Positions 13,266-58,400 of a stretch of 63,600 nt of DNA are shown piece by piece. Below the pieces are notes generated by a model that had not been told where the DNA came from, searched no databases, and worked only from the letters and a program-made list of their open reading frames with translations. Numbering within the stretch: the stretch's first letter is position 1; the number at the start of each line of letters is the position of its first letter. Made by a program: the position numbers and the translations under genes. The DNA is from a virus: the IMG/VR virus record IMGVR_UViG_3300027971_000055, positions 1-63,600 of that record. One strand, given 5' to 3'.

Positions 13266-13493
13266 TTAATTAGATGGGTTTTTGAGTTCTAACTCTTTGA
13301 GCATTTGAAGTATGTGAATGGCTTTGTCTATATCTTTTAAGCCACCTTTGTCGCGCCATCGTGTAATATATTTAATAGCGTTGCCTTCGGGAAATGGAAT
13401 ATTGTTTGCATGGATATATTCCATCGGTTGAATTTTGTATTTTTTGTAGTGGTCTCCATCCACTTGAATTTCTAATGCACTTTTTTCTGTCAT
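13266..13493 (-). CDS. DUF3310 protein
   Basis: The 75-residue product fits DUF3310, a domain common in phages and often labelled nucleotide kinase without firm proof: QVDGDHYKKYKIQPMEYI, GNAIKYITRWRDKGGLKDI and a final amphipathic helix. It starts with ATG after GGAG and overlaps the VRR-NUC gene stop by four bases. A role in nucleotide metabolism is likely but the biochemistry is not settled. Confidence 0.85.
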   Translation of the reverse strand: MTEKSALEIQVDGDHYKKYKIQPMEYIHANNIPFPEGNAIKYITRWRDKGGLKDIDKAIHILQMLKELELKNPSN

Positions 13494-13777
13494 TCTATCT
13501 CCTTTATTAGAGTTAATAGTTCTTGCATATTACCTTCATTTATTACTATTGCCAAGCCATTTCTACTGATTATTTGGTCTATGTTGTATTTTTGTAACGC
13601 AGTTAGTGTGCCTTTGCCTGCCTTACATTCTATTGCTATGAACCTGCCTTTGTAGCAAGCGATGATGTCGGGGATACCACTCTTTCCGTATCCCCCTGTT
13701 TGTGGTGAGAAATGATATGCGTTAATATCATCTAAGATTTTTTTTACTTTTACTTTTACTCTTCCTTCGGGTGTCAT
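13490..13777 (-). CDS. VRR-NUC domain nuclease
   Basis: The 95-residue protein is a minimal VRR-NUC: GKSGIPDIIACYKGRFIAIE then CKAGKG, giving the catalytic D ... E-x-K of the PD-(D/E)XK fold, followed by a helix with LQKYNIDQI. Phage VRR-NUC proteins are structure-specific nucleases, some resolving four-way junctions. It overlaps the previous gene by 50 bases and the next by four. Its start, MTPEGRVKVKVKK, has only a weak Shine-Dalgarno. Confidence 0.88.
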   Translation of the reverse strand: MTPEGRVKVKVKKILDDINAYHFSPQTGGYGKSGIPDIIACYKGRFIAIECKAGKGTLTALQKYNIDQIISRNGLAIVINEGNMQELLTLIKEIE

Positions 13778-14165
13778 TCTCTTCGTTCCAATCTAATTTA
13801 TTCATACCATCTTCAATGCCAAGTAGTGAGCGTAGTTCGCACTCTTCTAAAACAACGATATACATTGTTTCCGATACTCTCCAACCGACATCACCCATAC
13901 TATCATCGTGTGGATAGTAAAATATATCTATTGCATTTACTTCTTCATCATTAAGATATTTCTTACCCGATGCTCTAGCCATTGTGAGCTTACTTAGTAT
14001 ATTGTCGGGTAGTGTATCTTCGGTAAAAGTTCTCCTAAATTTATTCCCTACAAACACAATGTAGTTTGGGTTTATATATCTTACAGGCACGCGATGATGG
14101 TTCTTTAATGTTTCATGTGGTAGTGCGTGTAAATCATCTAGGTCAAACAAGTTTATCATATTCAT
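13728..14165 (-). CDS. Hypothetical protein of the MoxR/VWA region
   Basis: I place the start at ATG 14165, preceded by AAGGGA at spacing 5, giving 145 residues; the longer frame runs into the upstream gene. The body is acidic (MNMINLFDLDDLHAL) and beta-rich; the C-terminus is a basic tail (RRKSKSKSKKNLR) overlapping the VRR-NUC start. No domain recognised. It begins one base after the previous stop. Confidence 0.6.
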   Translation of the reverse strand: MNMINLFDLDDLHALPHETLKNHHRVPVRYINPNYIVFVGNKFRRTFTEDTLPDNILSKLTMARASGKKYLNDEEVNAIDIFYYPHDDSMGDVGWRVSETMYIVVLEECELRSLLGIEDGMNKLDWNEENDTRRKSKSKSKKNLR

Positions 14166-14166
14166 A

Positions 14167-15234
14167 CTATCCCTTTGGAATGATGATTGCACAATGGTCA
14201 AAGTAATTTAACTTGCTACCCCATCTGTCTTTAGTTTTATTAATAACAAGTATGTCTTCAAAGTATTCATCACGATTATAGAAATAATCTTTAACTACAT
14301 ACTGCTCTCTTTCTCTTTCATCTTTTTCTTCTATCTTAAGTTTCTGCATGGTTAGAATATGTCTTATACTATCTATCTCATCATAGTCATCTAACGACTC
14401 TACTCGCTTAAGTTCCTTAGTATATATGATTGGCTTCTCATCATCAACCCTACCCTTCTCAACATAATTAAACTTGGCTCTACCTACTACATACCCTTCT
14501 GTCCCGTATGTCAATAGCATATGAAATTCTTTACCTAATACATCGGTAAGCGATTCTTTAAGTGTATTTGCCTTTACATCAATGTCATTCATTTTTGCTA
14601 ATGTTTCTATCATCTTAGTTTTTATTTTGTCATCTAATACACTCATAGGTGTCTGCCCTAGTAATACCTTTAACATATCATGTATTTCTTCGTTGTCTAT
14701 TTTATGATAGTTTTTATCACTAAGTATTCTATCTACATTACCAACCATGTCTGATACTTCTCTTACATATTGAGCAGATATTACATCACCCTTAGTCGGT
14801 ATAGCTTTCTGTAATTTAATGTTCTTAATAAGTTGTGGCAATTTAACAGAACGCAAAGTATGATGGTCAGTAGTGTTTTGTGATTTCTCTTTATAAAAGC
14901 GTGGATTATAAAAGTAATATGTCATACCATGCACCTTACCATTACTAGCCCAAGCCAATCCATATGGTAAGCCATCATCTAATGTTAGAAGAAACGCATC
15001 TATCTCAGTATACTCACCCTTCTTAACACCTTCTACCCAATCACGAATTTCAGATTTAAAGTAATAAGCATAGTTATCACCATAACCTTTATTCTTGAGC
15101 ATCTCTATCTTCTGAAATACTTTTAGCCCATACTTATGGTTAAGTTCCATAATAAGTTTCTTACTCTCGGCATTATAGTTGATGTCGTAATCTAGTTGCG
15201 TAGTGTAGCACGCGTCATAAATATAACCTTGCAT
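14167..15234 (-). CDS. Hypothetical protein of the MoxR/VWA region
   Basis: This 355-residue soluble, charged protein follows ATG with GGAG at good spacing. It has no transmembrane helix and no motif I can name; LTLDDGLPYGLAWASNG and VVKDYFYNRDEYF are notable segments, with a helical centre (about 130-220). It lies in a run of co-directional genes with identical-style ribosome sites that also encode VWA, MoxR and DUF3150 proteins, so it may be a substrate or partner of that module. Confidence 0.65.
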   Translation of the reverse strand: MQGYIYDACYTTQLDYDINYNAESKKLIMELNHKYGLKVFQKIEMLKNKGYGDNYAYYFKSEIRDWVEGVKKGEYTEIDAFLLTLDDGLPYGLAWASNGKVHGMTYYFYNPRFYKEKSQNTTDHHTLRSVKLPQLIKNIKLQKAIPTKGDVISAQYVREVSDMVGNVDRILSDKNYHKIDNEEIHDMLKVLLGQTPMSVLDDKIKTKMIETLAKMNDIDVKANTLKESLTDVLGKEFHMLLTYGTEGYVVGRAKFNYVEKGRVDDEKPIIYTKELKRVESLDDYDEIDSIRHILTMQKLKIEEKDEREREQYVVKDYFYNRDEYFEDILVINKTKDRWGSKLNYFDHCAIIIPKG

Positions 15235-15243
15235 AATTTTCTC

Positions 15244-15504
15244 CTAGTGTATGTTGTTAGATGTATCTACAAAAAATGTTTCATCGTGGTCTTTTGTTAA
15301 ATTTGATAAGTGGTCATATCTAACACCCATTGTTTTTAAGAACGACTCCTTATCAATCTCTGCGTTAAGTGCTGATACAACAAGGGCAAAGGCGAGTGCA
15401 TCTAGTCCTTGTCCAAAACTTAATTCACTTTTTTCTAATACTGCTATTAGTTCTTTAACCTTAGCACCTACTTTATAATTTACTTCTTTTATTTCTTTTT
15501 TCAT
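15244..15504 (-). CDS. Hypothetical small protein
   Basis: An 86-residue protein (MKKEIKEVNYKVGAKVKELI) with predicted helices, including a hydrophobic one, LDALAFALVVSALNAEI, that looks like a packed helix rather than a membrane span. Strong GGAG before the ATG. No family recognised; part of the module between 13728 and 19788. Confidence 0.65.
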   Translation of the reverse strand: MKKEIKEVNYKVGAKVKELIAVLEKSELSFGQGLDALAFALVVSALNAEIDKESFLKTMGVRYDHLSNLTKDHDETFFVDTSNNIH

Positions 15505-15513
15505 TTCTATCTC

Positions 15514-16434
15514 CTATAAGTATCTGTAAACAAAATTGTTATTAACTTTAATATCTAAACCCCATGCACTTGATGATATGTTTTGTGTGTAGTCAAACTC
15601 TTTAACATTAAACACATCATTATTTTTTTGTAATACTTTATATATCTTTTTCTTAGCCCTATCATAACTTTCTTTAATATTATTACTATATCTCCACCAA
15701 CTTACTGCATTCATGTATAGTATAAAAGAGTCAAACGGGCTACTCTCTAGTATCTCATCAGCTTTATCCATAACTTCTTTAGTATTATCTCCATCTTTAA
15801 TGTCAAGGTATCCGTAATTGCCATTCTCTACCCAATACTTAGGGAAGTATTCTCTACCTATTTCTTTAATGATGTCGCTTATCTTATCTTGTTCTAAATT
15901 AACATACATTACTTCTGCAACCTTATAAGCATTTTCATACTTAGCTAGTAACGCTTTAGATTTCTCTCGGCTAAGAGTTTTCTTAACGAAGGTATATTTA
16001 CTACTCTCATGTAACTCCAATGTATCCATATTCATACGCAACCCCCTAAAGATTGGTATGACTCGCCATGTATTATTTTCTTTATCTATTTTCTTACTAT
16101 AAATAATTCCACCATGTCTGACACTACTGCTAAAGTTTCCACTAAAATATCCACTTGACATGATTTGTCTTAATCCTTGATGCATATACCTACTACCTAC
16201 ATCAAACTCTATTGTGTTATCACTTCTTACAATACCAAACACATTAGGTTCAGAGATGTCTTTTCTATAGTAATAACATAATCTGAATTGTGGCACTCCA
16301 TCAACCACATCTTTTAAGAAATACTTATGCCCATATTTTCTATCACTAAAAGGAAATCTATTTTCACTCCCCCTATATGGCTCTTGAGTTTCGGATATTT
16401 TTAATAGCCTTTGATAATTAAATTCTCTGTTCAT
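15514..16434 (-). CDS. Hypothetical protein of the MoxR/VWA region
   Basis: The ATG at 16434 (MNREFNYQRLLK) sits in the leader GGAGAATAGTATGAA, identical to that of the MoxR gene, so it is preferred to an upstream start inside the VWA gene. The 306-residue product is soluble and rich in aromatic and charged residues, with GSRYMHQGLRQIMSSG and WRVIPIFRGLRM as distinct blocks. I do not recognise a domain. It immediately follows the VWA gene and is probably functionally tied to it. Confidence 0.65.
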   Translation of the reverse strand: MNREFNYQRLLKISETQEPYRGSENRFPFSDRKYGHKYFLKDVVDGVPQFRLCYYYRKDISEPNVFGIVRSDNTIEFDVGSRYMHQGLRQIMSSGYFSGNFSSSVRHGGIIYSKKIDKENNTWRVIPIFRGLRMNMDTLELHESSKYTFVKKTLSREKSKALLAKYENAYKVAEVMYVNLEQDKISDIIKEIGREYFPKYWVENGNYGYLDIKDGDNTKEVMDKADEILESSPFDSFILYMNAVSWWRYSNNIKESYDRAKKKIYKVLQKNNDVFNVKEFDYTQNISSSAWGLDIKVNNNFVYRYL

Positions 16435-16435
16435 A

Positions 16436-17683
16436 CTATTCTCCTTTTTTAATAATCTTACCACTTGGCACTTTTAGATTTTCATTCTGAGTTACAAGCC
16501 ACATAGTCGGTGCAGATATATTCCATTGGATATCATTCTCTACATACCCATCTGTAAATACAATCACACCTTCTGCTACTATCTTATGTTTATTTATATA
16601 ATCACTAACACTACTAACATGAGTTCCACCACCACCTAATGGTTTTAATAGTTTCGCTATGTTTTCATATTGGGAAGGCTCAAACTTCTGTTCACCATGC
16701 ACTTCTGTATCCCACCATAAAACACGAACACCACTAGGGGAACACACCGAACAAATAGATGCCAGTTCCGATGCAAACTCAGTAAGTTCTAGGCTACCTA
16801 TTGAACCCGATGTATCAATCGCTATGATTAACTCGCCAACACTATTAGTTTCAAGGCTTGGCATATAAATATCATTAGCCATAAGTCGTTTGTTAAATCT
16901 TCGCCAAGTAAATTCTTCACTACCTTTGGTTGATGATGTAACAAAATCTCTTAGTTCATGTCGCCAATCAATCTTAGGTGCTAACAATTCTTCAATGGCT
17001 CTAGGCATCTTACTGCCCATTCTGCCTGCAAGTATGCCACCTTGTCGTAATGCCCTATCAATCTTATCTGATAACTCACCGACTTGTTCGGGTGTCATTT
17101 GCTCTGATGCATTAAAGTCATGTTCATCTAGTGTTTTAGTAGGCATACCCCTACCACCTTGTGAATTACCATTACCCTTACCACCTTGTGAATCTCCATC
17201 ACCACTACCTTCACCTTCTAATGATTGTGCGTTCTTTGCACGCTCACTATTTTCCTTCTTGAGATAGTCATACACTTGCTTGACCGACCAATTATGAAAC
17301 TTGTCGTGATACAAGCCACCATCGGGCAATTTACATAATGACTTATCATTAAGGTGTGTAATTACATCATTAACAACATAATCTGCTGATGCATTCATTA
17401 AGTGTGGGTTATCTTTAAATTCATTCTTAAACCTACCAATATGTTTTAGTGCTACATGAAGGTTCTCATGCAATACCAATGCTCTGAGTTCTTGGTCTGT
17501 TAGTTTAGATATAAATTTATTACCATACTTCTTGTTATACCCATCGGTGTATGCCGTTATTTCTTCATCAACTACAACACTATTACCCATCAACATAATG
17601 CCCGAGTAGAGTGCCGTTTCTGCGTGTTTCATCAATGCGACATGGGCTTTCTTTAGTCGCATACTTTGGTCTATGCTATTCAT
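16436..17683 (-). CDS. HExxH metallopeptidase-VWA protein (DUF2201 type)
   Basis: This 415-residue protein joins two domains. Residues 1-150 form a zinc-metallopeptidase-like domain with LHENLH (H72-E73-x-x-H76). A Gly/Ser/Glu-rich linker spans about 155-180. Residues 285-415 form a von Willebrand A domain with a complete metal-ion adhesion site: DTSGS (D290, S292, S294), T354 in GGGGTHVS and D378 in VFTDGY. The pattern matches the DUF2201 family, which partners with MoxR AAA+ ATPases; the ATPase at 17696-18757 is the next gene upstream. The VWA is expected to bind a partner via Mg2+, and the peptidase-like part may cut or merely bind it. Confidence 0.88.
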   Translation of the reverse strand: MNSIDQSMRLKKAHVALMKHAETALYSGIMLMGNSVVVDEEITAYTDGYNKKYGNKFISKLTDQELRALVLHENLHVALKHIGRFKNEFKDNPHLMNASADYVVNDVITHLNDKSLCKLPDGGLYHDKFHNWSVKQVYDYLKKENSERAKNAQSLEGEGSGDGDSQGGKGNGNSQGGRGMPTKTLDEHDFNASEQMTPEQVGELSDKIDRALRQGGILAGRMGSKMPRAIEELLAPKIDWRHELRDFVTSSTKGSEEFTWRRFNKRLMANDIYMPSLETNSVGELIIAIDTSGSIGSLELTEFASELASICSVCSPSGVRVLWWDTEVHGEQKFEPSQYENIAKLLKPLGGGGTHVSSVSDYINKHKIVAEGVIVFTDGYVENDIQWNISAPTMWLVTQNENLKVPSGKIIKKGE

Positions 17684-17695
17684 AACTATCTCCTA

Positions 17696-18757
17696 TTAAA
17701 ATAACACATGGTTATCAACTGCCCATTTAGAAATCTCTGCGTTGTTTCTTACCAACTTCATACCATTCTTATGACGCACCATCATAGTAAAGAATACTGC
17801 CTGCAACTCACTACTTTCCATGCGATTTACAAACTTCATAAACTTACTAACTTCGTCTTGTGTTTTCAATGTGTCTGTAGCTTGGAACATCAACATCAAC
17901 AACGCTGATACTTCTGTCGGCATAGCAATCTCAGTAGGTTTCTCTAGTATGCTTTCAAACTTCGGTAAAGACTTTTCTATCTGTAGGAACGCTGACATAT
18001 CGCCTGCACATGACTGACCAAGCGTGCCTGCTAGTGCGACCATCGTTGCATTCTCACCTAGTATCTCTTTGTTATCCACAATGACTGATGATTTTGCCAA
18101 TGAACGGGGTGATACAAACGATAACATCGGCTTGCTTGGATTAAAGATATAGGGATTATCTGCTTGCCCATCATCTAAGTAACTATTCAAACATCTTGGG
18201 AACATATGAACCCATGCTCTTATCAACGAGTGAACACCATTATCGCCTGCCCACTTGAGCCAACTATCTGCATTAGGCTTTTCCATACGCATGATACAAA
18301 CACGATTGCCTGCATGAGCCAACATACTATCGCCCACACCATCGCTTGCATTGTTACTTGTTGCAAACACTATGCTACCTTCGGGCAACGGGGTATCGCC
18401 AACACATCTCTCTAGCATTAGTCTTGTGAATATAACTTGTAGTAGTTTCGGTGATTTCATAAACTCGTCTAGCAATATGACTTTAGGTTTTGGTGATGAT
18501 AGTTTAAACAAACTACCCACATAGCTTTCCAACGATTTTGTTTCGTGATTAGGGATAGTCATAGCTATGTCTGACATATCTTTAACAGGGCAATCTACAT
18601 AGATGTAATCATACCCATCGCCTAAATCTTCTTCTAACATACTTAATAGCGATGTCTTACCACAACCTGGCTCGCTCTGTATCACAGGTGTAAGTGTCTT
18701 ACCGATTACAGGAATTAACTTTCTTAGTTCATTGATACTTACTGATACTAGGTTCAT
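17696..18757 (-). CDS. MoxR-like AAA+ ATPase
   Basis: This 353-residue ATPase has Walker A SEPGCGKTS (28-36), Walker B VILLDEF (D97, E98), sensor 1 FATSNN (131-136) and the arginine-containing SFVSPRSLAK block typical of MoxR proteins. MoxR ATPases act as chaperones that load metals or remodel partners through VWA proteins. It lies between the DUF3150 gene and the HExxH-VWA gene. The ATG at 18757 is set by the leader GGAGAATAGT. Confidence 0.9.
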   Translation of the reverse strand: MNLVSVSINELRKLIPVIGKTLTPVIQSEPGCGKTSLLSMLEEDLGDGYDYIYVDCPVKDMSDIAMTIPNHETKSLESYVGSLFKLSSPKPKVILLDEFMKSPKLLQVIFTRLMLERCVGDTPLPEGSIVFATSNNASDGVGDSMLAHAGNRVCIMRMEKPNADSWLKWAGDNGVHSLIRAWVHMFPRCLNSYLDDGQADNPYIFNPSKPMLSFVSPRSLAKSSVIVDNKEILGENATMVALAGTLGQSCAGDMSAFLQIEKSLPKFESILEKPTEIAMPTEVSALLMLMFQATDTLKTQDEVSKFMKFVNRMESSELQAVFFTMMVRHKNGMKLVRNNAEISKWAVDNHVLF

Positions 18758-18837
18758 ACTATTCTCCATTTATATAATTAACTGATAGAACGATGCTAAA
18801 CTACACTTGTTCAATTACAACTAACACTTCATTTAAT

Positions 18838-18867
18838 AAAGCGTAGTTCAGCACGCTCACTATTTAA
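18838..18867 (+). repeat. Copy of the AAGCGT inverted-repeat family, flipped
   Basis: Plus-strand AAAGCGTAGTTCAGCACGCT followed by CACTATTTAA matches the repeat found upstream of three minus-strand genes, but in the opposite orientation and without a following ribosome site. It lies between the MoxR and DUF3150 genes. Confidence 0.65.
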
Positions 18868-18873
18868 CTTAAC

Positions 18874-19788
18874 TTAAAACTTAAACTTAGATAAGATGTC
18901 ATCAACTTCCGACTTCACCTTATCTCTTACTGCATCACTCTCTCTGATTGACTTGATATCAACCCCATTGAGTGCATTCTCTAACTTAACTACTACTTCA
19001 CTTAACTTACTACTTATCTCATTATCAATAGGTTTAAACTTCTTAAAGGTATCACATAATTCTTTGGCTTTCTCTATGGTCGTATCATAGATTTTGCGTT
19101 TCTTGATTATAACTTCGCCCGTTGTTCCGTCTTGCTTTTCAATAACTCCACAACAATGCGAGATACTTTCCATTACTTCTGTGATACGGGCAACTTGGTC
19201 ATTTACGATGCCAGTTATAATCTGCTCTGCTTGGCTCTCGTATTGTAGTTTTAAATCACTAGCGATATCATCTGATATACTGCATCGCCAATCATGACTA
19301 GGCACTTCTGCCACATATAATTTTATTCCGAATTTATTTCTTACTTCATCTACATTTGGGTAATCATCTTGGCTAAACATATCGCCTTGTTTGAATGCCA
19401 TGTCTGATACGATTGATTGGTAGTTCAACAGGAAATTATCCAATAGGCGATAGTATTCCGTTTGGTGGTCTGTAAACTCTACCTTAAACTTCTCTAGGTT
19501 TGCGACAGGCAATAGGTCTTGGCTATTGTTCCAACGGAAAGTGCTACGCTTTAACCAATTGTAAATAGTCTGTCTGTAATTACTTACCTTCTTATGATGT
19601 ATGTCATCTGCTAATAGGTTCTTAACAAATCTGCCTGCACTAGCGTCTGCATTTTTTAATGTCGTTACTTCATCAGAGATAACTCTGTCTTGCTTGGTTG
19701 CACTCCACACATTCACATCTACTGACACCAATACTGCCGATGTCGCCAATGAAATGATATGGTTTGGTTGTTGTATTTCAAAGTTCAT
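18874..19788 (-). CDS. DUF3150-like partner of the MoxR/VWA module
   Basis: This 304-residue, mostly helical protein resembles DUF3150, found beside MoxR and VWA genes in phages and integrative elements: an N-terminal VSVDVNVWSATKQDR block, a middle DWRCSISDDIASDL and a helical C-terminus. The start ATG is preceded by AAGGAGAACGAT and, upstream of that, a repeat leader cassette and a promoter (19898-19926), so it is the first gene of the MoxR/VWA transcript. Function is unknown; a substrate-recognition or assembly role is inferred from linkage. Confidence 0.7.
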   Translation of the reverse strand: MNFEIQQPNHIISLATSAVLVSVDVNVWSATKQDRVISDEVTTLKNADASAGRFVKNLLADDIHHKKVSNYRQTIYNWLKRSTFRWNNSQDLLPVANLEKFKVEFTDHQTEYYRLLDNFLLNYQSIVSDMAFKQGDMFSQDDYPNVDEVRNKFGIKLYVAEVPSHDWRCSISDDIASDLKLQYESQAEQIITGIVNDQVARITEVMESISHCCGVIEKQDGTTGEVIIKKRKIYDTTIEKAKELCDTFKKFKPIDNEISSKLSEVVVKLENALNGVDIKSIRESDAVRDKVKSEVDDILSKFKF

Positions 19789-19798
19789 ATCGTTCTCC

Positions 19799-19836
19799 TT
19801 AGTTAGTAAGCGTGCTTAGCTACGCTTTGTTTTAAA
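19799..19836 (-). repeat. Leader cassette repeat upstream of DUF3150 gene
   Basis: On the minus strand the sequence AAGCGTAGCTAAGCACGCTT, then ACTAACTAAGGAG, forms a 6-bp stem (AAGCGT/ACGCTT) joined to the Shine-Dalgarno. Nearly the same element precedes the genes at 20859 and 21584. It may form a 5' RNA hairpin that tunes message stability or translation. Confidence 0.7.
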
Positions 19837-19897
19837 TTGTTTTCATTCATGTCATAACTATTTCGTGATATATAAGTTTCACTACCCACACAACTAC

Positions 19898-19926
19898 ATT
19901 ATAGTATAACTTTACATATAAACCAA
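19898..19926 (-). promoter_or_regulatory. Sigma70-like promoter of the DUF3150-MoxR-VWA transcript
   Basis: TTGGTT, a 17-base gap and TATAAT read toward the DUF3150 gene. The gap (TATATGTAAAGTTATAC) is identical to that of the 21710-21738 promoter, so it belongs to a repeated promoter family in this arm. Confidence 0.65.
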
Positions 19927-19957
19927 GTGATTGGGTGAGATAGTCAAGCCTATACCC

Positions 19958-20113
19958 CTACTTAATATTCTTTTCTGCTATCTTTAAACGCTTTGAGTAA
20001 TAGATTGCATCTTGTATTGCCTGCCACTCAAATAAATTTCGTTCTTTAATCTGGGCTATCTGTTGTTCTTCTTCTAATTGTTTCTGATGCCACATACTAT
20101 CTATGTTATCCAT
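19958..20113 (-). CDS. Hypothetical small helical protein
   Basis: The ATG at 20113 (MDNIDSMWHQKQLEEEQQ) follows GGAGAACGCT and gives 51 residues; a longer frame from 20158 overlaps the upstream gene and lacks a clear ribosome site. The product is a charged helix rich in Glu, Gln and Lys. It is the last gene before the promoter of the MoxR module. Function unknown. Confidence 0.6.
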   Translation of the reverse strand: MDNIDSMWHQKQLEEEQQIAQIKERNLFEWQAIQDAIYYSKRLKIAEKNIK

Positions 20114-20150
20114 AGCGTTCTCCTGTTCTGTTATTAAATAATTTTTATAC

Positions 20151-20324
20151 TTACCCATACTTACTCTCCATTTCGTTTTTGTATTCCCAATTTATATCTG
20201 ATAACCATTCACTAAAGTTCTCTCCTACATCATCTTCATAAAAGGTTTTCTTTGTGCCATCTAAAAACTTTACTACTACCACTACTTCGTCTATCTGATT
20301 ATGTTCCATTTCAGTTTCACTCAT
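20151..20324 (-). CDS. Hypothetical small acidic protein
   Basis: Start at ATG 20324 (MSETEMEHNQIDE), preceded by GGGGA; 57 residues. It contains VVVVVKFLDGTKKTFYEDDV, a beta-rich segment, and an acidic C-terminus. It overlaps the upstream 40-residue gene by eight bases (ATGAGTGA). No family recognised. Confidence 0.6.
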   Translation of the reverse strand: MSETEMEHNQIDEVVVVVKFLDGTKKTFYEDDVGENFSEWLSDINWEYKNEMESKYG

Positions 20325-20439
20325 CTTGTTCCCCTTCATCTACTGAAAACCTTATCCACCTAGTCCCATTACAAATTTCTACAACTTCGTAGTCTAGGTC
20401 TGCGTCATCTAATACTTTATATAGTTCTTGTGGTGTCAT
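20317..20439 (-). CDS. 40-residue hypothetical protein
   Basis: An ATG at 20439 follows GGGGG at spacing 8. The product begins MTPQELYKVLDDAD and ends FSVDEGEQDE; a short helix followed by a beta pair (YEVVEICNGTRWIRF). It fills the gap between the zinc-ribbon gene and the 57-residue gene, overlapping both slightly, which supports it being real. Function unknown. Confidence 0.6.
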   Translation of the reverse strand: MTPQELYKVLDDADLDYEVVEICNGTRWIRFSVDEGEQDE

Positions 20440-20663
20440 CTTACATTCCCCCCTTTGTTATTTAACCCATGTAAGTCTGTTAGGTTTGTTATCACCATGT
20501 AATTACTCTTATGCATAGGTGCTATTGTGTGTTTCTTCATGCGAGATATTATTTCACCACACTTTAAGCAAGTGTTATAGCCTAGTTTCCGTCTGCCTGC
20601 CACAATGTCATCACCACACTTGATGCAATCACTTAGTTTCTTAGTCTGTGTCAAGTTCGTCAT
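20436..20663 (-). CDS. Small zinc-ribbon protein (DksA/TraR-like finger)
   Basis: The ATG at 20663 follows GGAGAACAAC, the same leader as the next gene upstream; 75 residues result. It carries C-x2-C ... C-x2-C in CIKCGDDIVAGRRKLGYNTC then LKCGE, like a DksA/TraR zinc finger, and a conserved-looking tail HKSNYMVITNLTDLHGL. Proteins of this type can bind RNA polymerase. The longer frame from 20747 lies inside the neighbouring gene and is rejected. Confidence 0.7.
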   Translation of the reverse strand: MTNLTQTKKLSDCIKCGDDIVAGRRKLGYNTCLKCGEIISRMKKHTIAPMHKSNYMVITNLTDLHGLNNKGGNVR

Positions 20664-20859
20664 GTTGTTCTCCACCGATTGCTCGGATAAAATGTAGTAG
20701 TTCCCGACACACTTCATACCTACCATGCACGATGTCGTGTTCCCCATCTAATATCGTAGGGTTTAGCCCATTCACAACTTCTGCGTCATGTTTGAGTTCA
20801 TCTTTGAGCCACTCGGTAATATGAATTACCATGTTCTTATACTTCAATGGTCTTGCCAT
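20641..20859 (-). CDS. Hypothetical small protein
   Basis: This 72-residue protein (MARPLKYKNMVIHITEWLKD) is acidic towards the C-terminus and predicted helical. It has a strong leader (AAGGAGAACAAC) and is the first gene after repeat cassette 20870-20905. It overlaps the zinc-ribbon gene by 23 bases. Function unknown. Confidence 0.65.
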   Translation of the reverse strand: MARPLKYKNMVIHITEWLKDELKHDAEVVNGLNPTILDGEHDIVHGRYEVCRELLHFIRAIGGEQHDELDTD

Positions 20860-20869
20860 GTTGTTCTCC

Positions 20870-20905
20870 TTAGTTAGTAAGCGTGCTTAACTACGCTTGG
20901 TTTAA
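20870..20905 (-). repeat. Leader cassette repeat upstream of 20641-20859
   Basis: Minus-strand AAGCGTAGTTAAGCACGCTT followed by ACTAACTAAGGAGAAC. The hairpin and linker match the cassette at 19799-19836 almost base for base, including the junction with the Shine-Dalgarno, although the downstream genes are unrelated. Confidence 0.75.
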
Positions 20906-21216
20906 TCTTCACAATTACCACCTATACAATGTTGCGTTAAGATTTCATTCTCAATCTCTTCTTGTGCATCTCGTATAAGATAATCTTCAGCGTTCTCATT
21001 CAAGCGTTCAAACATATTGTGTTCATAAACTTTAACCTTGCATGGTAACCCTGTATCTTCAACTCGGTCTTTAATGATTGACGCTATATGACTTTCGGGG
21101 GTGAATTGATTATCTCCCCAATCATCTTCTTTGTTCCATGAGTTAATCTCACTCACTCTATTCTTATCCATCTTAACTTCTACTATTGCTACATACTTAA
21201 TATACTCAGTCGCCAT
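20902..21216 (-). CDS. Hypothetical acidic protein
   Basis: The ATG at 21216 (MATEYIKYVAIVEVKMD) is set by AAGGAGAACGAT, identical to the DUF3150 leader; the upstream extension overlaps the next gene. The 104-residue product is acidic, with a ferredoxin-like beta/alpha start and a C-terminal helix ending HCIGGNCED. Function unknown. Confidence 0.65.
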   Translation of the reverse strand: MATEYIKYVAIVEVKMDKNRVSEINSWNKEDDWGDNQFTPESHIASIIKDRVEDTGLPCKVKVYEHNMFERLNENAEDYLIRDAQEEIENEILTQHCIGGNCED

Positions 21217-21226
21217 ATCGTTCTCC

Positions 21227-21388
21227 TTAGTCTGATTGTTCACATTCCAATACATCTAAAACACCCTGTATTTCTTGCCACTTCTCGGGGTGTTGTAGGG
21301 CTTTTAACTCTGCGTCTTTCATAGAGCCTGCATCAATCTCGCAGTCATACTCTATTGTTTCTTGTATCTTTAGCTTAAATCTTTTCAT
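21227..21388 (-). CDS. 53-residue hypothetical protein
   Basis: Two adjacent ATGs occur; the second, at 21388, lies five bases from GGGGA and is preferred. The product starts MKRFKLKIQETIEYDCEIDA and continues with a helix (MKDAELKALQHPEKWQEI). Its stop runs into the ribosome site of the next gene. No family recognised. Confidence 0.6.
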   Translation of the reverse strand: MKRFKLKIQETIEYDCEIDAGSMKDAELKALQHPEKWQEIQGVLDVLECEQSD

Positions 21389-21398
21389 CATGTTCCCC

Positions 21399-21584
21399 TT
21401 ATCTAAGAATTGTAACTAACAATAAAAACGCTGATATACCCCAACCTATTACTTCGCTGATAATCATTCGTCTATACTTTTCTTTGGGGATAGTGATGTA
21501 TTCCGACATATTTACTTCCCTGTCATAGTTATAAGGGCTTTGCATTTTAATTTTTTGTCCTTTGAATATTGGTCTTGTTTTCAT
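21399..21584 (-). CDS. Small membrane protein
   Basis: The 61-residue frame (MKTRPIFKGQKIKMQ) has GGAG eight bases from its ATG and ends with a hydrophobic helix (IISEVIGWGISAFLLLVTIL). A second start, MSEYITIPKEK at 21509, has its own GGGAAG and would give 36 residues keeping the same helix. Both may be used. It is the first gene after the repeat cassette 21599-21633 and promoter 21710-21738. Confidence 0.6.
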   Translation of the reverse strand: MKTRPIFKGQKIKMQSPYNYDREVNMSEYITIPKEKYRRMIISEVIGWGISAFLLLVTILR

Positions 21585-21598
21585 AATCTAATCTCCTA

Positions 21599-21633
21599 TT
21601 TAGTAAGCGTGCTTAACTACGCTTGGTTTTAAT
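21599..21633 (-). repeat. Leader cassette repeat upstream of 21399-21584
   Basis: Minus-strand AACCAAGCGTAGTTAAGCAC followed by GCTTACTAAATAGGAG. Third forward copy of the hairpin-plus-ribosome-site leader, located between promoter 21710-21738 and the first gene of this transcript. Confidence 0.75.
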
Positions 21634-21709
21634 AAAATTTCTAACACTACTTTTTGCTGTGCGATTAGCTGATGTATCATGTATTAAATACGCTACTCAC
21701 ACAATACCC

Positions 21710-21738
21710 ATTATAGTATAACTTTACATATAACACAA
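21710..21738 (-). promoter_or_regulatory. Sigma70-like promoter next to the octamer array
   Basis: TTGTGT, a 17-base gap and TATAAT read away from the octamer array toward 21399-21584. The gap is identical to that of the 19898-19926 promoter. It is about 90 bases from the nearest octamer, so a protein bound to the array could influence it. Confidence 0.65.
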
Positions 21739-21825
21739 GGGTTTCGGCTGACTATCTCACTCGTAGTTTTCACTCTATTTTGCGTAGCTTGGGGTTGATT
21801 AATGCTAAGTTATTGATTTATATGA

Positions 21826-22242
21826 TGTTCCAATTGTTCCAACGATGTTCCAAGTTTTCACTTTACTAATAAGAACAAAATAGGCTTGATAAATCGTGTG
21901 CTGAAATCGGGTAAGTCTTTGTTTTATATATATTATATTATATATTTATTAAGTAAGTAGTATGCTAGAAAATGGTCTTGTTCCAATGTTCCAAGTTTTT
22001 TTAAGTGAATATATATGCTAGCATTTTTTATGTTTGCTCTGCGTGAATCTAACTTAGTCTGACTAAATTTCTCAAATATATTCCCTATTGCAAAAAACTT
22101 GGAACATTGGAACAACCTTTATAATCAACAACTTAGCTTGGAACATTGTTGGAACAACTTTACATATAATTGGAACACTTTTTGGAACAAGACTGGAACA
22201 ACCTATCACCTATTAATATCTTATACCATACAACTTGGAACA
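21826..22242. repeat. Mirror array of 13 octamers; candidate replication origin or control region
   Basis: Five TGTTCCAA octamers (starting 21826, 21835, 21846, 21979, 21987) are followed by eight in inverted orientation, TTGGAACA (starting 22099, 22107, 22138, 22149, 22170, 22182, 22193 with one mismatch, and 22235). Between and within the two sets lie a nearly pure A/T block (21921-21955) and the palindrome ATGCTAGCAT (22015-22024). Bases 21978-22001 and 22092-22115 form a perfect 24-bp inverted repeat. Iteron arrays beside an AT-rich unwinding zone are typical of replication origins; multiple operators are the main alternative. The 1,028-base stretch 21634-22661 holds no convincing gene. 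Confidence 0.8.
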
Positions 22243-22333
22243 AGCCTGATACGCCAATACTTTACATAAGCATGGTTAGAGTATATCTTACACGACACAA
22301 TACAAGTTCACAACCAACATAACCAGCTAAGCC

Positions 22334-22368
22334 AAAACCAAGCGTATTTAAGCACGCTCACTAAATAA
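22334..22368 (+). repeat. Copy of the AAGCGT inverted-repeat family, flipped
   Basis: Plus-strand AACCAAGCGTATTTAAGCAC followed by GCTCACTAAATAA matches the leader cassette without a ribosome site. It lies in the non-coding region beyond the octamer array. Confidence 0.65.
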
Positions 22369-22423
22369 CAACCACGCTAAATTATATCTTCAACCACGCA
22401 ACCACACGCACTTCACACTCAAC

Positions 22424-22452
22424 ACGCTCGTCGACATAGAACTGGTCTCAAT
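22424..22452. repeat. GCTCGTCGACATAGAACTGG element, copy 1
   Basis: The block CGCTCGTCGACATAGAACTGG followed by T-C-T-C-A-A recurs at 23486-23513 with two changes and in degenerate form at 22583-22604. Each copy lies just beyond a UUCG hairpin terminator or in the same non-coding region. Binding site or processing signal; function unknown. Confidence 0.6.
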
Positions 22453-22624
22453 TAGGTGGCAGGCATTCGGTGGCTAGAAATTTTATAGTTTGAGCAGATT
22501 GATTAGGCAGCGGAAGGGAATTGTATGAGCTAAGAATATAACAGATGATAAAACACACATTAAATATTTAATATATACACACACATCGACAATCACTGGT
22601 TTCAAAAATTGAGACCAAAAAAAA

Positions 22625-22646
22625 GCAGAGAGCCGAAGCTCTCTGC
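22625..22646 (-). terminator. Intrinsic terminator with UUCG tetraloop
   Basis: On the minus strand GCAGAGAGC-TTCG-GCTCTCTGC is followed by eight T. The 9-bp stem with a stable UUCG loop and U tract is an excellent Rho-independent terminator for the 22662-23345 gene, insulating it from the octamer region. Confidence 0.93.
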
Positions 22647-22661
22647 CTAGTCACTACTGTA

Positions 22662-23345
22662 TTACTTGTTAAACTTTTTAATCAAAGCCTCGCCTTGTGA
22701 TAACCAAGAGCCAAACTCTTTTTTAACCGTAGCAGTTAGAAGCTCATCGCCTCTTGCCTCGGCAGTTTTAATCCTAGCTTTGAGGGTCTTGATATTATCG
22801 TTAAAAGCCTCGACAATAGTTTTTACTGCACGACCCTTTTTATTAGGATTTTCAATACCAACTACTTGACGGATTGAAGCTAACAAGTTTTTCATACCAG
22901 CTGATACATGGTCTTTACCTTTTTTACGCAACGGCTTAGCAAGAGCATAAATATATGGGTCACTCTTAGCTAGTGCGGTAAACTTTTGCTGAGTATAACC
23001 CATCGCTAAGCCTACGGTCATATGCACCTTAATTGCATTTTTATTCTTAGCGTCATTAAACTCTGCCTCAGTGACCTGTTGCATTTTGTTATCTTTAACC
23101 ATGTTGAAAGTATCATGGTCTTTTGCATACCACTCTTTAAAGCGTCTAGCAAAACCGAGTTTAATCTCGGCTACATCATTGTCACTAGGCTTGGTTAGAA
23201 TGTTTGGCACTCTATCCAATATTTTCTTAGCAGTGCCTAGCATGTCACTATATGCACCTTGATACTCATATGCTAAGCCACTAAGAGATTGAGAGGATAC
23301 TGCTACTGCCTTGCTTACTGCTTCTACTACTTTTGCTTTTTTCAT
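22662..23345 (-). CDS. Hypothetical basic helical protein
   Basis: This 227-residue protein is Lys/Ala-rich and helical with no membrane span (MKKAKVVEAVSKAVAVSSQS; KTLKARIKTAEARGDELL). It has its own promoter (23407-23435), Shine-Dalgarno GGAG and a very strong terminator directly after its stop, so it forms a single-gene transcript, probably highly expressed. It lies beside the octamer array. A nucleoid-like or origin-binding role is possible from composition and place, but I recognise no family. Confidence 0.7.
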   Translation of the reverse strand: MKKAKVVEAVSKAVAVSSQSLSGLAYEYQGAYSDMLGTAKKILDRVPNILTKPSDNDVAEIKLGFARRFKEWYAKDHDTFNMVKDNKMQQVTEAEFNDAKNKNAIKVHMTVGLAMGYTQQKFTALAKSDPYIYALAKPLRKKGKDHVSAGMKNLLASIRQVVGIENPNKKGRAVKTIVEAFNDNIKTLKARIKTAEARGDELLTATVKKEFGSWLSQGEALIKKFNK

Positions 23346-23406
23346 ACATACTCCATAAGTTAAGTTAAGTTAAATAACAGCACGATAATCTGTTGCTGTT
23401 GGTATC

Positions 23407-23435
23407 GTTATATATAGTCTTAGCGTATATGTAAA
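23407..23435 (-). promoter_or_regulatory. Sigma70-like promoter of 22662-23345
   Basis: TTTACA, a 17-base gap and TATAAC read toward the gene starting at 23345. The same hexamers and gap length occur at 24321-24349, supporting both. Confidence 0.7.
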
Positions 23436-23462
23436 GCGTATTCAAACACGCTTACTAATTAA
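23432..23462 (+). repeat. Copy of the AAGCGT inverted-repeat family, flipped
   Basis: Plus-strand AAAGCGTATTCAAACACGCT followed by TACTAATTAAG. The repeat abuts and slightly overlaps the -35 of the 23407-23435 promoter, so a factor binding it could control that promoter. Confidence 0.6.
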
Positions 23463-55409: not shown

Positions 55410-58400
55410 ATGGCATTAATAGACGATTTACGCGCTGAATATCCTGGCCGGTACAGGACAATGACCGATAAGGAAATAGCCGACCAATTATATAAAGATC
55501 ACTATGCTACCGAAATGCCCAAGATTTCTTTCTATAAGCAGTTAGGTATAGACGTTCCCGAATCAAGTTATGCTGAGATAATAGGAAGAGATTTACCATT
55601 AGCTGGCGCACAGGGTGTAGTAGGTCTATATGAAGGTGTTAAAGGTCTTACAGGGTTTGTCCCATTATCTAAAGGTAAAATTCCTAAAGCAATAGAGAGT
55701 GCAGAAAAATCTGTTTTTGGTGGCTCAGCTTCAGATTTACAACAATATCTAGAGTCCTTAAAATCAGAAGGACAACAAATGGTATCGCAAGGTGCCGCAG
55801 AAATTCCCTCAACAGGTAACTTATTACGTGACGCTACTGGGCAACTTATATATGCTGGACAAAACCCACAACAAATTGGACAAATAGTTGCCCAGTCATT
55901 ACCTTCTACTTACGGAGGAGCATTAATTGGTAGGGGTATAAGTGCAACTGGAGCTAAATTTGGTAAGGACATAACTCCTATTACTGCAGCTGCATCGGGT
56001 GAAGGTACGTTAGCTGCTGGTTCTGGTTTAGAATCCGTCCGTCAACAAACTGAAAATAAAGAAGTTACAACCCCTCAACAACTTATAACTGCATTTAGTG
56101 GTTATATGACTAATAAACTAGGTAGGCTTGGTAATAGGGCTGCTAAATACTTAGGTGTTGATGATATGGATGTTATATTAGTACGTGGTAATATGGGTTC
56201 TACACCTGCAGCAAATCAAAAAGCACAAAGTAAATTAGTAGCTGGATTAAAATCAGCACTTAGTGAATCAGTGTTTGAAGAACTTCCACAATCAACACAA
56301 GAACAAATATCACAAAATATAGCTTTAGGTAGACCTTACGATGAAGGTGTTGCAGAACAAATGGCTGCGGGTATAATTGGTGGTGCGGGAGCAGGGTTTG
56401 GGTTTGGTACATATAATCAGTATAAAGTAAATAAAGCATTAGATAATATGCCACCGCCCCCAACAGACGTAGACGCAGAGCCACCAGGTATAGATATAGA
56501 AGTACCAAAAACAGACACAAAGAAAAATGCCAAAACAAGAAAAGATTTAATAGATTCTATAGAAGATGCAGAAACAAAAAAATCATTAGAAGAACTTTTA
56601 GGTAAGAAAGGGAAACCAAGTGGAACTCAACAGACAACAGCTGGAACTAGCGATGAAGTATCTGGAGGATCAGATGATGGAACTACCGGAGGAACTAAAA
56701 AACCTGTCGGAGGTGGAGTGGATGGGGCTGCAACTGATGAACTCACAGATAAGACTGGAGAGGGAAGAAGCGACGTTGCATTAGAAACAATTACTACAAA
56801 CGACGTAGGTAAACCTTTTCCGTCAACAGGTCAAGCACACAAATTTCGTAGAGATAATAAACTTGAAAACTTATATTCTGTTATTACACAAGCTGACGGC
56901 ACTATTGCTCTTGTGCCAAAGATACCAGTTACAGAACAAAAACCCCTAGTAACTAAAACTAAAAAACCTGCAGTGACAAAAGAACCCGAAGTAGCTGCAG
57001 AAGAAACAGAAGAAGATATACCAGATGAAGAAATTGGTTGGGAAAAGTTTGAAGAAACTAAACCTGACGGTACTATAACTTCGGGGTTTAGAAGAAAACA
57101 AACTACTACTCAGAAAGATGCCCCAGTAGTTATATCAGCTAAGACGCCTAAATCTACCGAAGTATTAAAATCAGAAGCGGAACTTACAGAAGCTGATAAA
57201 GCCGATTTAGAACAAGAAGAAGCTGATGAAGAAGCCGCAAGTCAAGCTAGAATAGATGAAGCTAATCAAGGTGGATTTGAAGACTTACCTGATTACGTTA
57301 AAATAGGTTCTAAATTAGCATCTAAATCCCCAATAGTACAAGCAGAAGAATCTGATCCTAATGCTAGTACTGAATCTAAACGACAAGAAGCTAGAAGATT
57401 AGCGGTTAAACATGCCGCATTTGATCAAGCGATGGATGAGTTTGATACTGTAAGTACTGAAGATTTTGACGCAAAATTAAAAGAATTAGCTAATGAAAAG
57501 ATGGAAGAACTAAAAAAAGAGATGCGGGATAAAGGAGCTACTGAAGAAGAAATTAATAATAAACTTAGTACTAAAAAATTCTCTATTAATAAGCCATTAG
57601 AGTTTATAAAAGGTTCTACTCAAGCACAACGTTTTAGTAACTATTATAAAGAGTTTAATAAATTTTTAGGTACGAAGAAATTAAAACCTAGAAGAATTAA
57701 ACAAGCAACTACTCGCGAAGAATTTACAGAAACTCTATCTAAACAAGAAAGAAAATTATTTAATAAAGCATACTCTAGCTATATAACTACACAAGTTAAA
57801 TCTTTAAAATCTGGTGTTGCTTCTGTTGATGAAACGGAATCTAATGAAGCTGCATTATATAGAAAACTACAAGACGAAATAGAGCTAGTAAAAAAGAAAA
57901 AAGGTAGTCAAGCTAAAGTAGATAAGTATAAAGCAGATTACGCGATAGCTCGTGCAAAAGCACAAAAAACTTCTTTAAGTAGACAAGTTGTTGAGACAGA
58001 TACATCTGCACTATCTGATAAAGTTGCTAACCTAGAACAAGCTATTAAAGACGGCGAGAATGAAATCAAGTCTATTAAAGCTGCTAAAAAAATTAAAGAT
58101 AAAGCAGTGCAAATTAAAGGCGTTCAAACACAGATTAATAAAGATAGGGTTGAATTAAAACTTGCTAAAACAGAGTTAGATACGGCTCAAAAAACTACTA
58201 CAGTATTAGGTGCACCGGGAAGATACACAAATATATCTACTGAAGAAACTAGAGCAACTGAAATATTAACTAAACAAAATAAAAAGAATAAGAAAAAAGA
58301 AAAGGCTATACAAGAAGGAAATCCTGAAGAAGTATTAGAGGTTCTTGATGATGAGACTGAAGAATTAGCTAAATCTATTATTGTTCAAGATAAGAAAAAA

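What the first reader, a model, noticed from the sequence alone, without database searches (positions are those of the whole stretch)
13728..19788. MoxR ATPase, HExxH-VWA protein and DUF3150 form a phage chaperone-protease-like module
The three proteins are adjacent, share near-identical ribosome leaders and follow a dedicated promoter. MoxR/VWA pairs load metals or remodel protein partners in cells. Here the VWA protein keeps both HENLH and a complete metal adhesion site. Three unassigned proteins (14167, 15244, 15514) and perhaps 13728 lie in the same run and may be substrates or extra parts. A 6 kb investment inside a replication arm suggests host takeover, counter-defence or virion maturation.
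Basis: partly seen in the sequence, partly recalled or inferred. Interest (0 to 1): 0.75.

Follow-up and report, generated by a model that had tools for sequence, protein, structure and literature searches.

The report
Removable phage ATPase-protease gene block
A block of neighbouring genes for a three-protein machine (a ring-type ATPase, an adaptor-like protein and a metal-dependent protease) sits in an uncultured phage as a removable unit; related phages live without it, and the same trio turns up on bacterial plasmids and chromosomes, which makes its unknown job testable.

Summary
On the minus strand, window 13728-19788 encodes T (DUF3150-like), M (MoxR-like AAA+ ATPase), V (HExxH metallopeptidase plus VWA domain), then unassigned A, B, C, D. 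In uncultured phage contigs T-M-V is strictly ordered (58 of 58 V-fetched loci with enough upstream sequence); HExxH and MIDAS motifs are intact in 111 of 111 V proteins. The trio also occurs on plasmids and bacterial chromosomes. New point: the block is all or nothing. Flanking genes U and N lie 6.1-7.3 kb apart with it (30 loci) and 406-766 bp apart without it (12 loci), and block-less relatives keep similar terminase and portal genes. That argues against an obligatory virion-maturation role and for an accessory early function. Best reading: an ATPase-driven metalloprotease or remodelling machine, T as adaptor, acting on proteins tied to DNA replication or host takeover; its target is unknown. 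The MoxR plus metallopeptidase-VWA pair in phages is already published; the DUF3150 trio and its block-wise gain and loss were not found in my searches. New variant of a known kind.

The parts
18874..19788 (-). T: DUF3150-like third component, 304 aa, first gene of the block
   Evidence: T directly before M in 103 of 103 eligible contigs
17696..18757 (-). M: MoxR-like AAA+ ATPase (listed ORF to 18769; SD-preceded ATG at 18757, read by eye)
   Evidence: phrog_1297 7.9e-49; Walker A/B and sensor residues conserved
16436..17683 (-). V: HExxH zinc metallopeptidase domain plus VWA domain with MIDAS, 415 aa
   Evidence: PF13203 3.3e-31, PF09967 3.2e-18; both motifs in 111 of 111 relatives
15514..16434 (-). 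A: unassigned protein that follows V; confident AlphaFold model (pLDDT 91.6), no solved relative found
   Evidence: 91 of 101 eligible contigs
15244..15504 (-). B: 86-aa gene, only in the nearest relatives; probably not a core part
   Evidence: 8 loci
14167..15234 (-). C: unassigned 355-aa protein, missing in one sub-clade
   Evidence: 68 of 91 eligible contigs
13728..14165 (-). D: unassigned protein, last gene of the block, directly before N (ATG at 14165)
   Evidence: A to D 73 of 75, D to N 83 of 84 eligible contigs
19897..19920 (-). Promoter-like element (exact 24-nt repeat, TATAAT)
   Evidence: 2 copies in the window, 0 expected
19809..19827 (-). Hairpin-like palindromic leader before T; 6 copies at 18.8-23.5 kb (one more at 18839-18857 between T and M)
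   Evidence: 6 matches, 0.11 expected
13490..13777 (-). N: VRR-NUC/Hjc-like nuclease; flank kept in block-less phages, so outside the block
20902..21255 (-). U: upstream flank gene kept in block-less phages (SD-preceded start near 21216)

Best explanation
T-M-V is a three-part protein-remodelling machine. M would form an ATP-driven AAA+ ring. V would dock on it through its VWA/MIDAS domain and act on client proteins with its zinc metallopeptidase domain. T would be a dedicated adaptor or regulator. A, C and D are lineage-specific partners, client selectors or substrates. The block is transcribed with the early/replication genes and is gained or lost as one unit, so it is accessory. Its clients are most likely proteins connected with DNA replication, recombination or host takeover, not virion proteins. 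Shown: gene content, order, intact motifs, block-wise presence and absence, spread to plasmids and chromosomes. Inferred: complex formation, proteolysis, adaptor role, early expression, and the nature of the clients.
For: Order: T to M 103 of 103, M to V 101 of 101 eligible contigs; 58 of 58 eligible V-fetched loci carry T-M-V. Motifs: 111 of 111 V proteins keep HExxH and the D-T/S-S-G/A-S core; M motifs near-invariant. On a V tree of 102 rows the T label needs 6 changes against 27.5 in shuffles, 0 of 500 as low. Cell genomes picked only by Pfam DUF3150: of 7 enlarged loci, 5 have an HExxH plus DxSGS protein directly or one gene downstream of DUF3150, and 3 of these also a Walker-A protein upstream; V is so different there that my V model misses it. 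Accessory unit: 20 of 24 polymerase-fetched loci have the block, 4 lack all of T/M/V/A/C/D; two classes of U-N spacing; 2 label changes on the polymerase tree. Virion genes kept without it: terminase 84% and 90%, portal 80% and 92% identical to the window in two block-less records. Context: Pfam families around 14 T+ bacterial loci include DnaB, SSB, Rad52, RadC, Toprim and helicases, not listed among the top 25 for 11 T-less loci. The NorQ/NorD abstract supports VWA docking on a MoxR ring (PMC9976466, abstract and outline).
Against: No biochemistry. HExxH does not prove proteolysis. M has no Pfam match over cut-off to a MoxR model (AAA_3 E 0.026, below cut-off). The replication context may just be the usual early region of mobile elements. 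Partial distance correlations follow gene order (T-M 0.43, M-V 0.45, V-A 0.52, A-D 0.32; T-V 0.07), so they show linkage rather than contact. 30 of 80 V-type loci in cell genomes lack a detected T and 11 could not be judged, so V and M can work without T. Two of the 7 Pfam-DUF3150 loci show no such V-like neighbour. Block-less records are fragments (14.8-41 kb), so a copy elsewhere is not excluded.
Confidence: 0.5

Rival explanations
1. Virion maturation: the pair remodels and cleaves structural proteins, as proposed for group 2.2 jumbo phages.
For: Iyer et al. proposed this for the jumbo-phage pair (PMC7824862, passages). In N4-like roseophage RPP1, virion proteins are encoded near the gp24/gp25 homologues (PMC4193335, passages).
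Against: Block-less relatives keep terminase, portal and other virion genes. The block lies in the replication arm on the strand opposite to the virion genes. The trio is on plasmids and chromosomes.
Confidence: 0.12
2. Host-directed counter-defence: the machine removes or inactivates a host defence factor or shuts off a host protein early in infection.
For: Accessory, swappable, early-type position; variable fast-evolving partners A and D; spread among phages and plasmids. The block-less clade has other genes in its early region.
Against: No match of T, V, A or C to PADLOC models and only a weak one for M (E 0.0045). The trio is also chromosomal. No target known.
Confidence: 0.25
3. Self-directed replication or recombination helper: it remodels the element's own replication complexes, as ClpX does for Mu (recalled, no call).
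For: Next to nuclease, DUF3310 and DNA polymerase genes in phages and near DnaB, SSB, Rad52 and RadC families in bacterial loci.
Against: Block-less relatives keep a related polymerase (70% identical) and helicase (76-78%), so it is not needed for replication as such.
Confidence: 0.25
4. Metal or cofactor insertase: HExxH and MIDAS serve a metal-loading chaperone of the NorQ/NorD or CoxD/CoxE kind.
For: Known MoxR/VWA couples do this (PMC9976466 abstract).
Against: No candidate metalloenzyme partner conserved beside the block was identified; the known couples have no peptidase domain like V's (recalled).
Confidence: 0.1
5. Conflict or superinfection-exclusion system carried by the element, like the cellular VMAP ternary systems.
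For: Those are also MoxR plus VWA plus a third protein (PMC7159879, passages). T-less V relatives sit beside reverse-transcriptase genes.
Against: T is not called as VMAP (2 of 48 members touch VMAP-M1, best E 0.022). No effector domain was recognised.
Confidence: 0.13

Closest known systems
MoxR plus metallopeptidase-VWA pair of group 2.2 jumbo phages (Iyer et al. 2021, PMC7824862)
   Same: MoxR-type ATPase beside a VWA protein with an N-terminal metallopeptidase domain, in phages
   Different: As far as the passages I read tell, no DUF3150 third gene and no removable block with A, C and D; a virion role was proposed there
N4-like (Schitoviridae) gp24/gp25-type genes
   Same: M and V homologues: 632 phage records match V and 347 match M, many but not all N4-like; intact V motifs in the XC38 protein
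   Different: No T found beside them in the records checked; M and V are separated by another gene in XC38
Plasmid and chromosomal MoxR-DUF3150-VWA trio (Burkholderia, Cupriavidus, Rhodovastum and others)
   Same: Same three families side by side
   Different: Order mostly M-T-V; A, C and D have no match in those loci
VMAP ternary systems (Kaur et al. 2020, PMC7159879)
   Same: MoxR plus VWA plus a third conserved protein
   Different: Third protein is another family; the VWA component is not described with this metallopeptidase fusion in the passages I read
NorQ/NorD and RavA/ViaA
   Same: MoxR ring working with a VWA partner
   Different: Cellular chaperones with known clients; no DUF3150 (recalled)
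Planktothrix phage Pag-Yong1 (OL906435)
   Same: Named phage record carrying M, T and V in one run (T E 4.8e-19)
   Different: Order M-T-V with small genes between; genes after V are not related to A or C by hhalign

Membership tests
DUF2201 metallopeptidase-VWA | Pfam DUF2201_N and DUF2201 over cut-off | tested here: met
   109.3 vs 23.2 and 66.5 vs 26.4 bits
DUF2201 metallopeptidase-VWA | HExxH and MIDAS residues intact | tested here: met
   Window and 111 of 111 relatives
DUF2201 metallopeptidase-VWA | Proteolytic activity | not testable with these tools
   No assay
MoxR AAA+ ATPase | AAA+ Walker A, Walker B and sensor residues | tested here: met
   K38, D101, E102, N139 conserved
MoxR AAA+ ATPase | Curated MoxR-type Pfam model over cut-off | tested here: inconclusive
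   AAA_3 14.8 vs 27 bits, AAA_5 12.6 vs 22; AAA 20.2 vs 21.2. Relatives are annotated MoxR-like
DUF3150 | Window T over the Pfam cut-off | tested here: not met
   No DUF3150 match at E<=1
DUF3150 | Relatedness through intermediate members | tested here: met
   12 of 48 members at E<=0.1; tblastn to a DUF3150-annotated plasmid family; L168 T over cut-off
DUF3150 | Shared fold | tested here: inconclusive
   Foldseek on viral models: DUF3150-named protein E 4.2e-18 but TM 0.46 and model pTM 0.55
VMAP ternary system | VMAP as third protein | tested here: inconclusive
   2 of 48 T members touch VMAP-M1, best E 0.022
Known anti-phage defence or counter-defence system | Clear PADLOC match of block proteins | tested here: not met
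   None for T, V, A, C; M only E 0.0045

The most novel reading that the evidence does not exclude
T-M-V is a mobile, exchangeable ATP-driven metalloprotease machine that phages and plasmids share to remove host (or rival-element) proteins that block their DNA, with DUF3150 as adaptor and fast-evolving A, C and D selecting the target: a new class of counter-defence or host-takeover system.
Probability: 0.25. Interest if true: 0.85.

Novelty: new variant of a known kind. Interest (0 to 1): 0.6.

Why it matters
DUF3150 is a family without a function: a full-text search of the held library for 'DUF3150' found 0 papers. Linking it tightly to a MoxR-type ATPase and a metallopeptidase-VWA protein across phages, plasmids and chromosomes gives it a physical context. 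Near relatives with and without the block are a natural experiment: the same kind of phage can be compared with and without the machine, which speaks against an obligatory virion role and makes accessory roles directly testable.

Tried and rejected
Virion maturation as main role: lowered, since block-less relatives keep virion genes. A or C as relatives of the genes after V in CRP-7, RHph_TM3_14A, XC38 or Pag-Yong1 (including the AcrVA2-annotated gene): hhalign gave no support. PHROGs for A and C: only single-member weak hits. PDB: no significant sequence match for M, A or C, best E 0.0076 for V; no Foldseek match at E<=0.001 for T or A; VIA best Z 3.8 for A and 9.3 for T (a helical part), not interpretable. 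The 'HNH endonuclease' label that PHROG 1314 and some RefSeq records give to V: rejected, V is DUF2201. The named isolates nearest by terminase (DSL-LC04, HTVC023P, 023Pt_psg01) gave no T, M or V match in the 50 kb searched of each. Mirror-distance test: follows gene order only, not used as evidence of contact. Bacteroidota survey of DUF3150: only the seed genome, 1 of 296. Control limits: searches show only the top 25 of 84 and 97 families; I scanned 102 of 165 and 95 of 119 predicted flank proteins (small or long ones and some loci dropped).
Full report
What is there. The window is one IMG/VR virus record of 63,600 bases. Replication-type genes (DNA polymerase, helicase, primase/helicase) lie on the minus strand of the left part, and terminase, portal and head genes on the plus strand of the right part. 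The finding covers a minus-strand run. In transcription order it is T (18874-19788), M (to 17696), V (to 16436), A (to 15514), B (to 15244), C (to 14167) and D (to 13728), followed by N (VRR-NUC/Hjc-like nuclease) and K (DUF3310 relatives). V is a DUF2201 metallopeptidase-VWA protein far over the Pfam cut-offs. M is an AAA+ ATPase whose relatives are annotated MoxR-like. T has no direct Pfam hit, but its relatives tie it to DUF3150.

More than chance. Two viral-contig scans (by V and by T) gave 156 loci on 121 distinct contigs by shared 300-mers. Where the contig reaches far enough, T is followed by M in 103 of 103, M by V in 101 of 101, V by A in 91 of 101, A by D in 73 of 75, D by N in 83 of 84; C follows V in 68 of 91. 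Half of these loci were fetched with T, so the fairer count is the V-fetched set: 58 of 58 loci with at least 2.8 kb upstream carry T-M-V. All 111 V proteins of at least 380 aa keep HExxH and the MIDAS core. H81, a possible third ligand, is Q in 50 of 84 aligned rows, whereas D101 is invariant in 84 of 84, so D101 is the better guess for the third zinc ligand (inference).

Beyond phages. tblastn finds V in 52 and T in 46 plasmid records, the T count at an E-value limit of 1. In four inspected plasmids the ATPase, T and V lie in one run, in the order M-T-V; in the Simplicispira plasmid (L164) nine annotated genes lie between the ATPase and T. A scan of bacterial genomes by a V alignment kept 80 loci: 39 have T near V, 30 do not, 11 cannot be judged. 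On a V tree T needs 6 label changes against a shuffled mean of 27.5 (0 of 500 shuffles as low; several long branches, so the tree is rough). A, C and D have no match in those loci. As a survey that uses neither my T model nor V, Pfam DUF3150 was searched in 398 genomes of one phylum: 9 match, 8 over the cut-off. Of the 7 loci that I enlarged, 5 have a protein with both HExxH and DxSGS downstream of DUF3150, and 3 of these also have a Walker-A protein upstream; L348 and L349 show no such downstream protein. In a second phylum only the seed genome matched, 1 of 296. DUF3150 is thus rare and scattered in cells.

The block comes and goes as a unit. Loci fetched with the DNA polymerase are not selected for T or V. 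Of 80, 24 have at least 9 kb upstream of the polymerase: 20 carry T-M-V, with D in all 20, and 4 (L284, L290, L292, L296) carry N-K-polymerase with none of T, M, V, A, C, D. L292 and L296 are nearly identical, so these are about three independent contigs. The flank gene U (window 20902-21255) and N are 6,072-7,334 bp apart in 30 loci (about 18 distinct contigs) and 406-766 bp apart in 12 loci; an 88-aa gene related to the one in that gap was found in 16 loci, all block-less or unjudged. On the polymerase tree 33 polymerase-fetched loci plus the window are block-plus, 15 are minus, 32 of 80 are unlabelled, and the label needs 2 changes (13 in shuffles). L317 (minus) and L318 (plus) have identical polymerase proteins and 99.7% identical DNA over 4,222 bp, yet differ completely upstream of N; this is a recent swap or an assembly chimera. 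The records behind the minus loci hold no T or V match, but they are fragments.

What this says about function. Two block-less records encode terminase 84% and 90% and portal 80% and 92% identical to the window's, and the longer one also keeps several further virion genes. So closely related virions are probably built without the block, which argues against the virion-maturation role proposed for the jumbo-phage pair (PMC7824862, passages read). Around 14 T-bearing bacterial loci the most frequent Pfam families include helicases, DnaB, SSB, Rad52, RadC and Toprim, each in 2 or 3 of 102 proteins, besides TPR repeats and transposases. Around 11 T-less loci they are reverse transcriptases, DNA methylases and housekeeping families. 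Only the top 25 families are listed in each, so this is a tendency, not a statistic. Together with the place beside nuclease and polymerase genes in the phages, it favours an early, DNA-linked or host-directed accessory role.

Mechanism. From known MoxR/VWA couples (NorQ/NorD abstract, PMC9976466), the expected arrangement is an ATPase ring with the VWA domain docked at the pore. The metallopeptidase domain would then cut or hold the client. T has a helical C-terminal half in a middling model (pLDDT 83, pTM 0.55) and matches a DUF3150-named viral model (E 4.2e-18); adaptor is the simplest role. A is modelled well (pLDDT 91.6) but matches no solved fold clearly. A and D evolve fast (median distance 1.28 and 1.25, against 0.40-0.53 for T, M, V and polymerase). 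All interaction claims are inference.

Novelty. The MoxR plus metallopeptidase-VWA pair in phages is in print (PMC7824862). Ternary MoxR-VWA systems are in print for cells (PMC7159879, passages). My searches for DUF3150 (0 papers), DUF2201 (4 papers) and MoxR combinations (listings only, apart from the papers named) showed no account of the DUF3150 trio or of its block-wise gain and loss. The library lacks most subscription journals. New variant of a known kind.

Noticed in passing
L197, L198, L200, L204, L210, L217, L221 (e.g. L200:2715-5843): T-less MoxR plus V pairs in bacterial genomes are preceded by a 960-1,100-aa protein with a C-terminal reverse transcriptase domain (YADD or FADD intact in these 7; L200 protein matches PADLOC RT_XIII, 1e-81). 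Possibly an undescribed RT-MoxR-VWA system.
   Followed up: partly
L292:1288-4556 (also L284, L290, L296): Block-less phages carry 124-aa, 633-aa and 340-aa genes upstream; the last matches Peptidase_M28 just over cut-off (21.5 vs 21.3 bits). No match in the block-plus loci searched: possibly an alternative peptidase module.
   Followed up: partly
window 21826-22242: 12 copies of TTGGAACA in about 420 bp, in two opposite-facing groups (14 in the whole window, 2.7 expected), close to the turn of the cumulative GC skew near 24 kb: candidate replication origin or regulator sites.
   Followed up: partly
window 18839-23452: Palindromic hairpin-like element (AGCGTGCTNANCTACGCTT type), 6 copies, 0.11 expected, mostly just before early genes.
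   Followed up: partly
L249:25453-28634 (Planktothrix phage Pag-Yong1): The M-T-V run is followed by a 300-aa gene and a gene annotated as anti-CRISPR AcrVA2.
   Followed up: partly
PHROG 1314; e.g. NC_055823.1, NC_013692.1: V homologues in reference phage records are named 'HNH endonuclease', apparently a propagated label; they are DUF2201 metallopeptidase-VWA relatives.
   Followed up: partly
window 55410-62597: A 2,395-aa plus-strand ORF with partial relatives in other contigs of the clade (35-37% identity); not examined.
   Followed up: no
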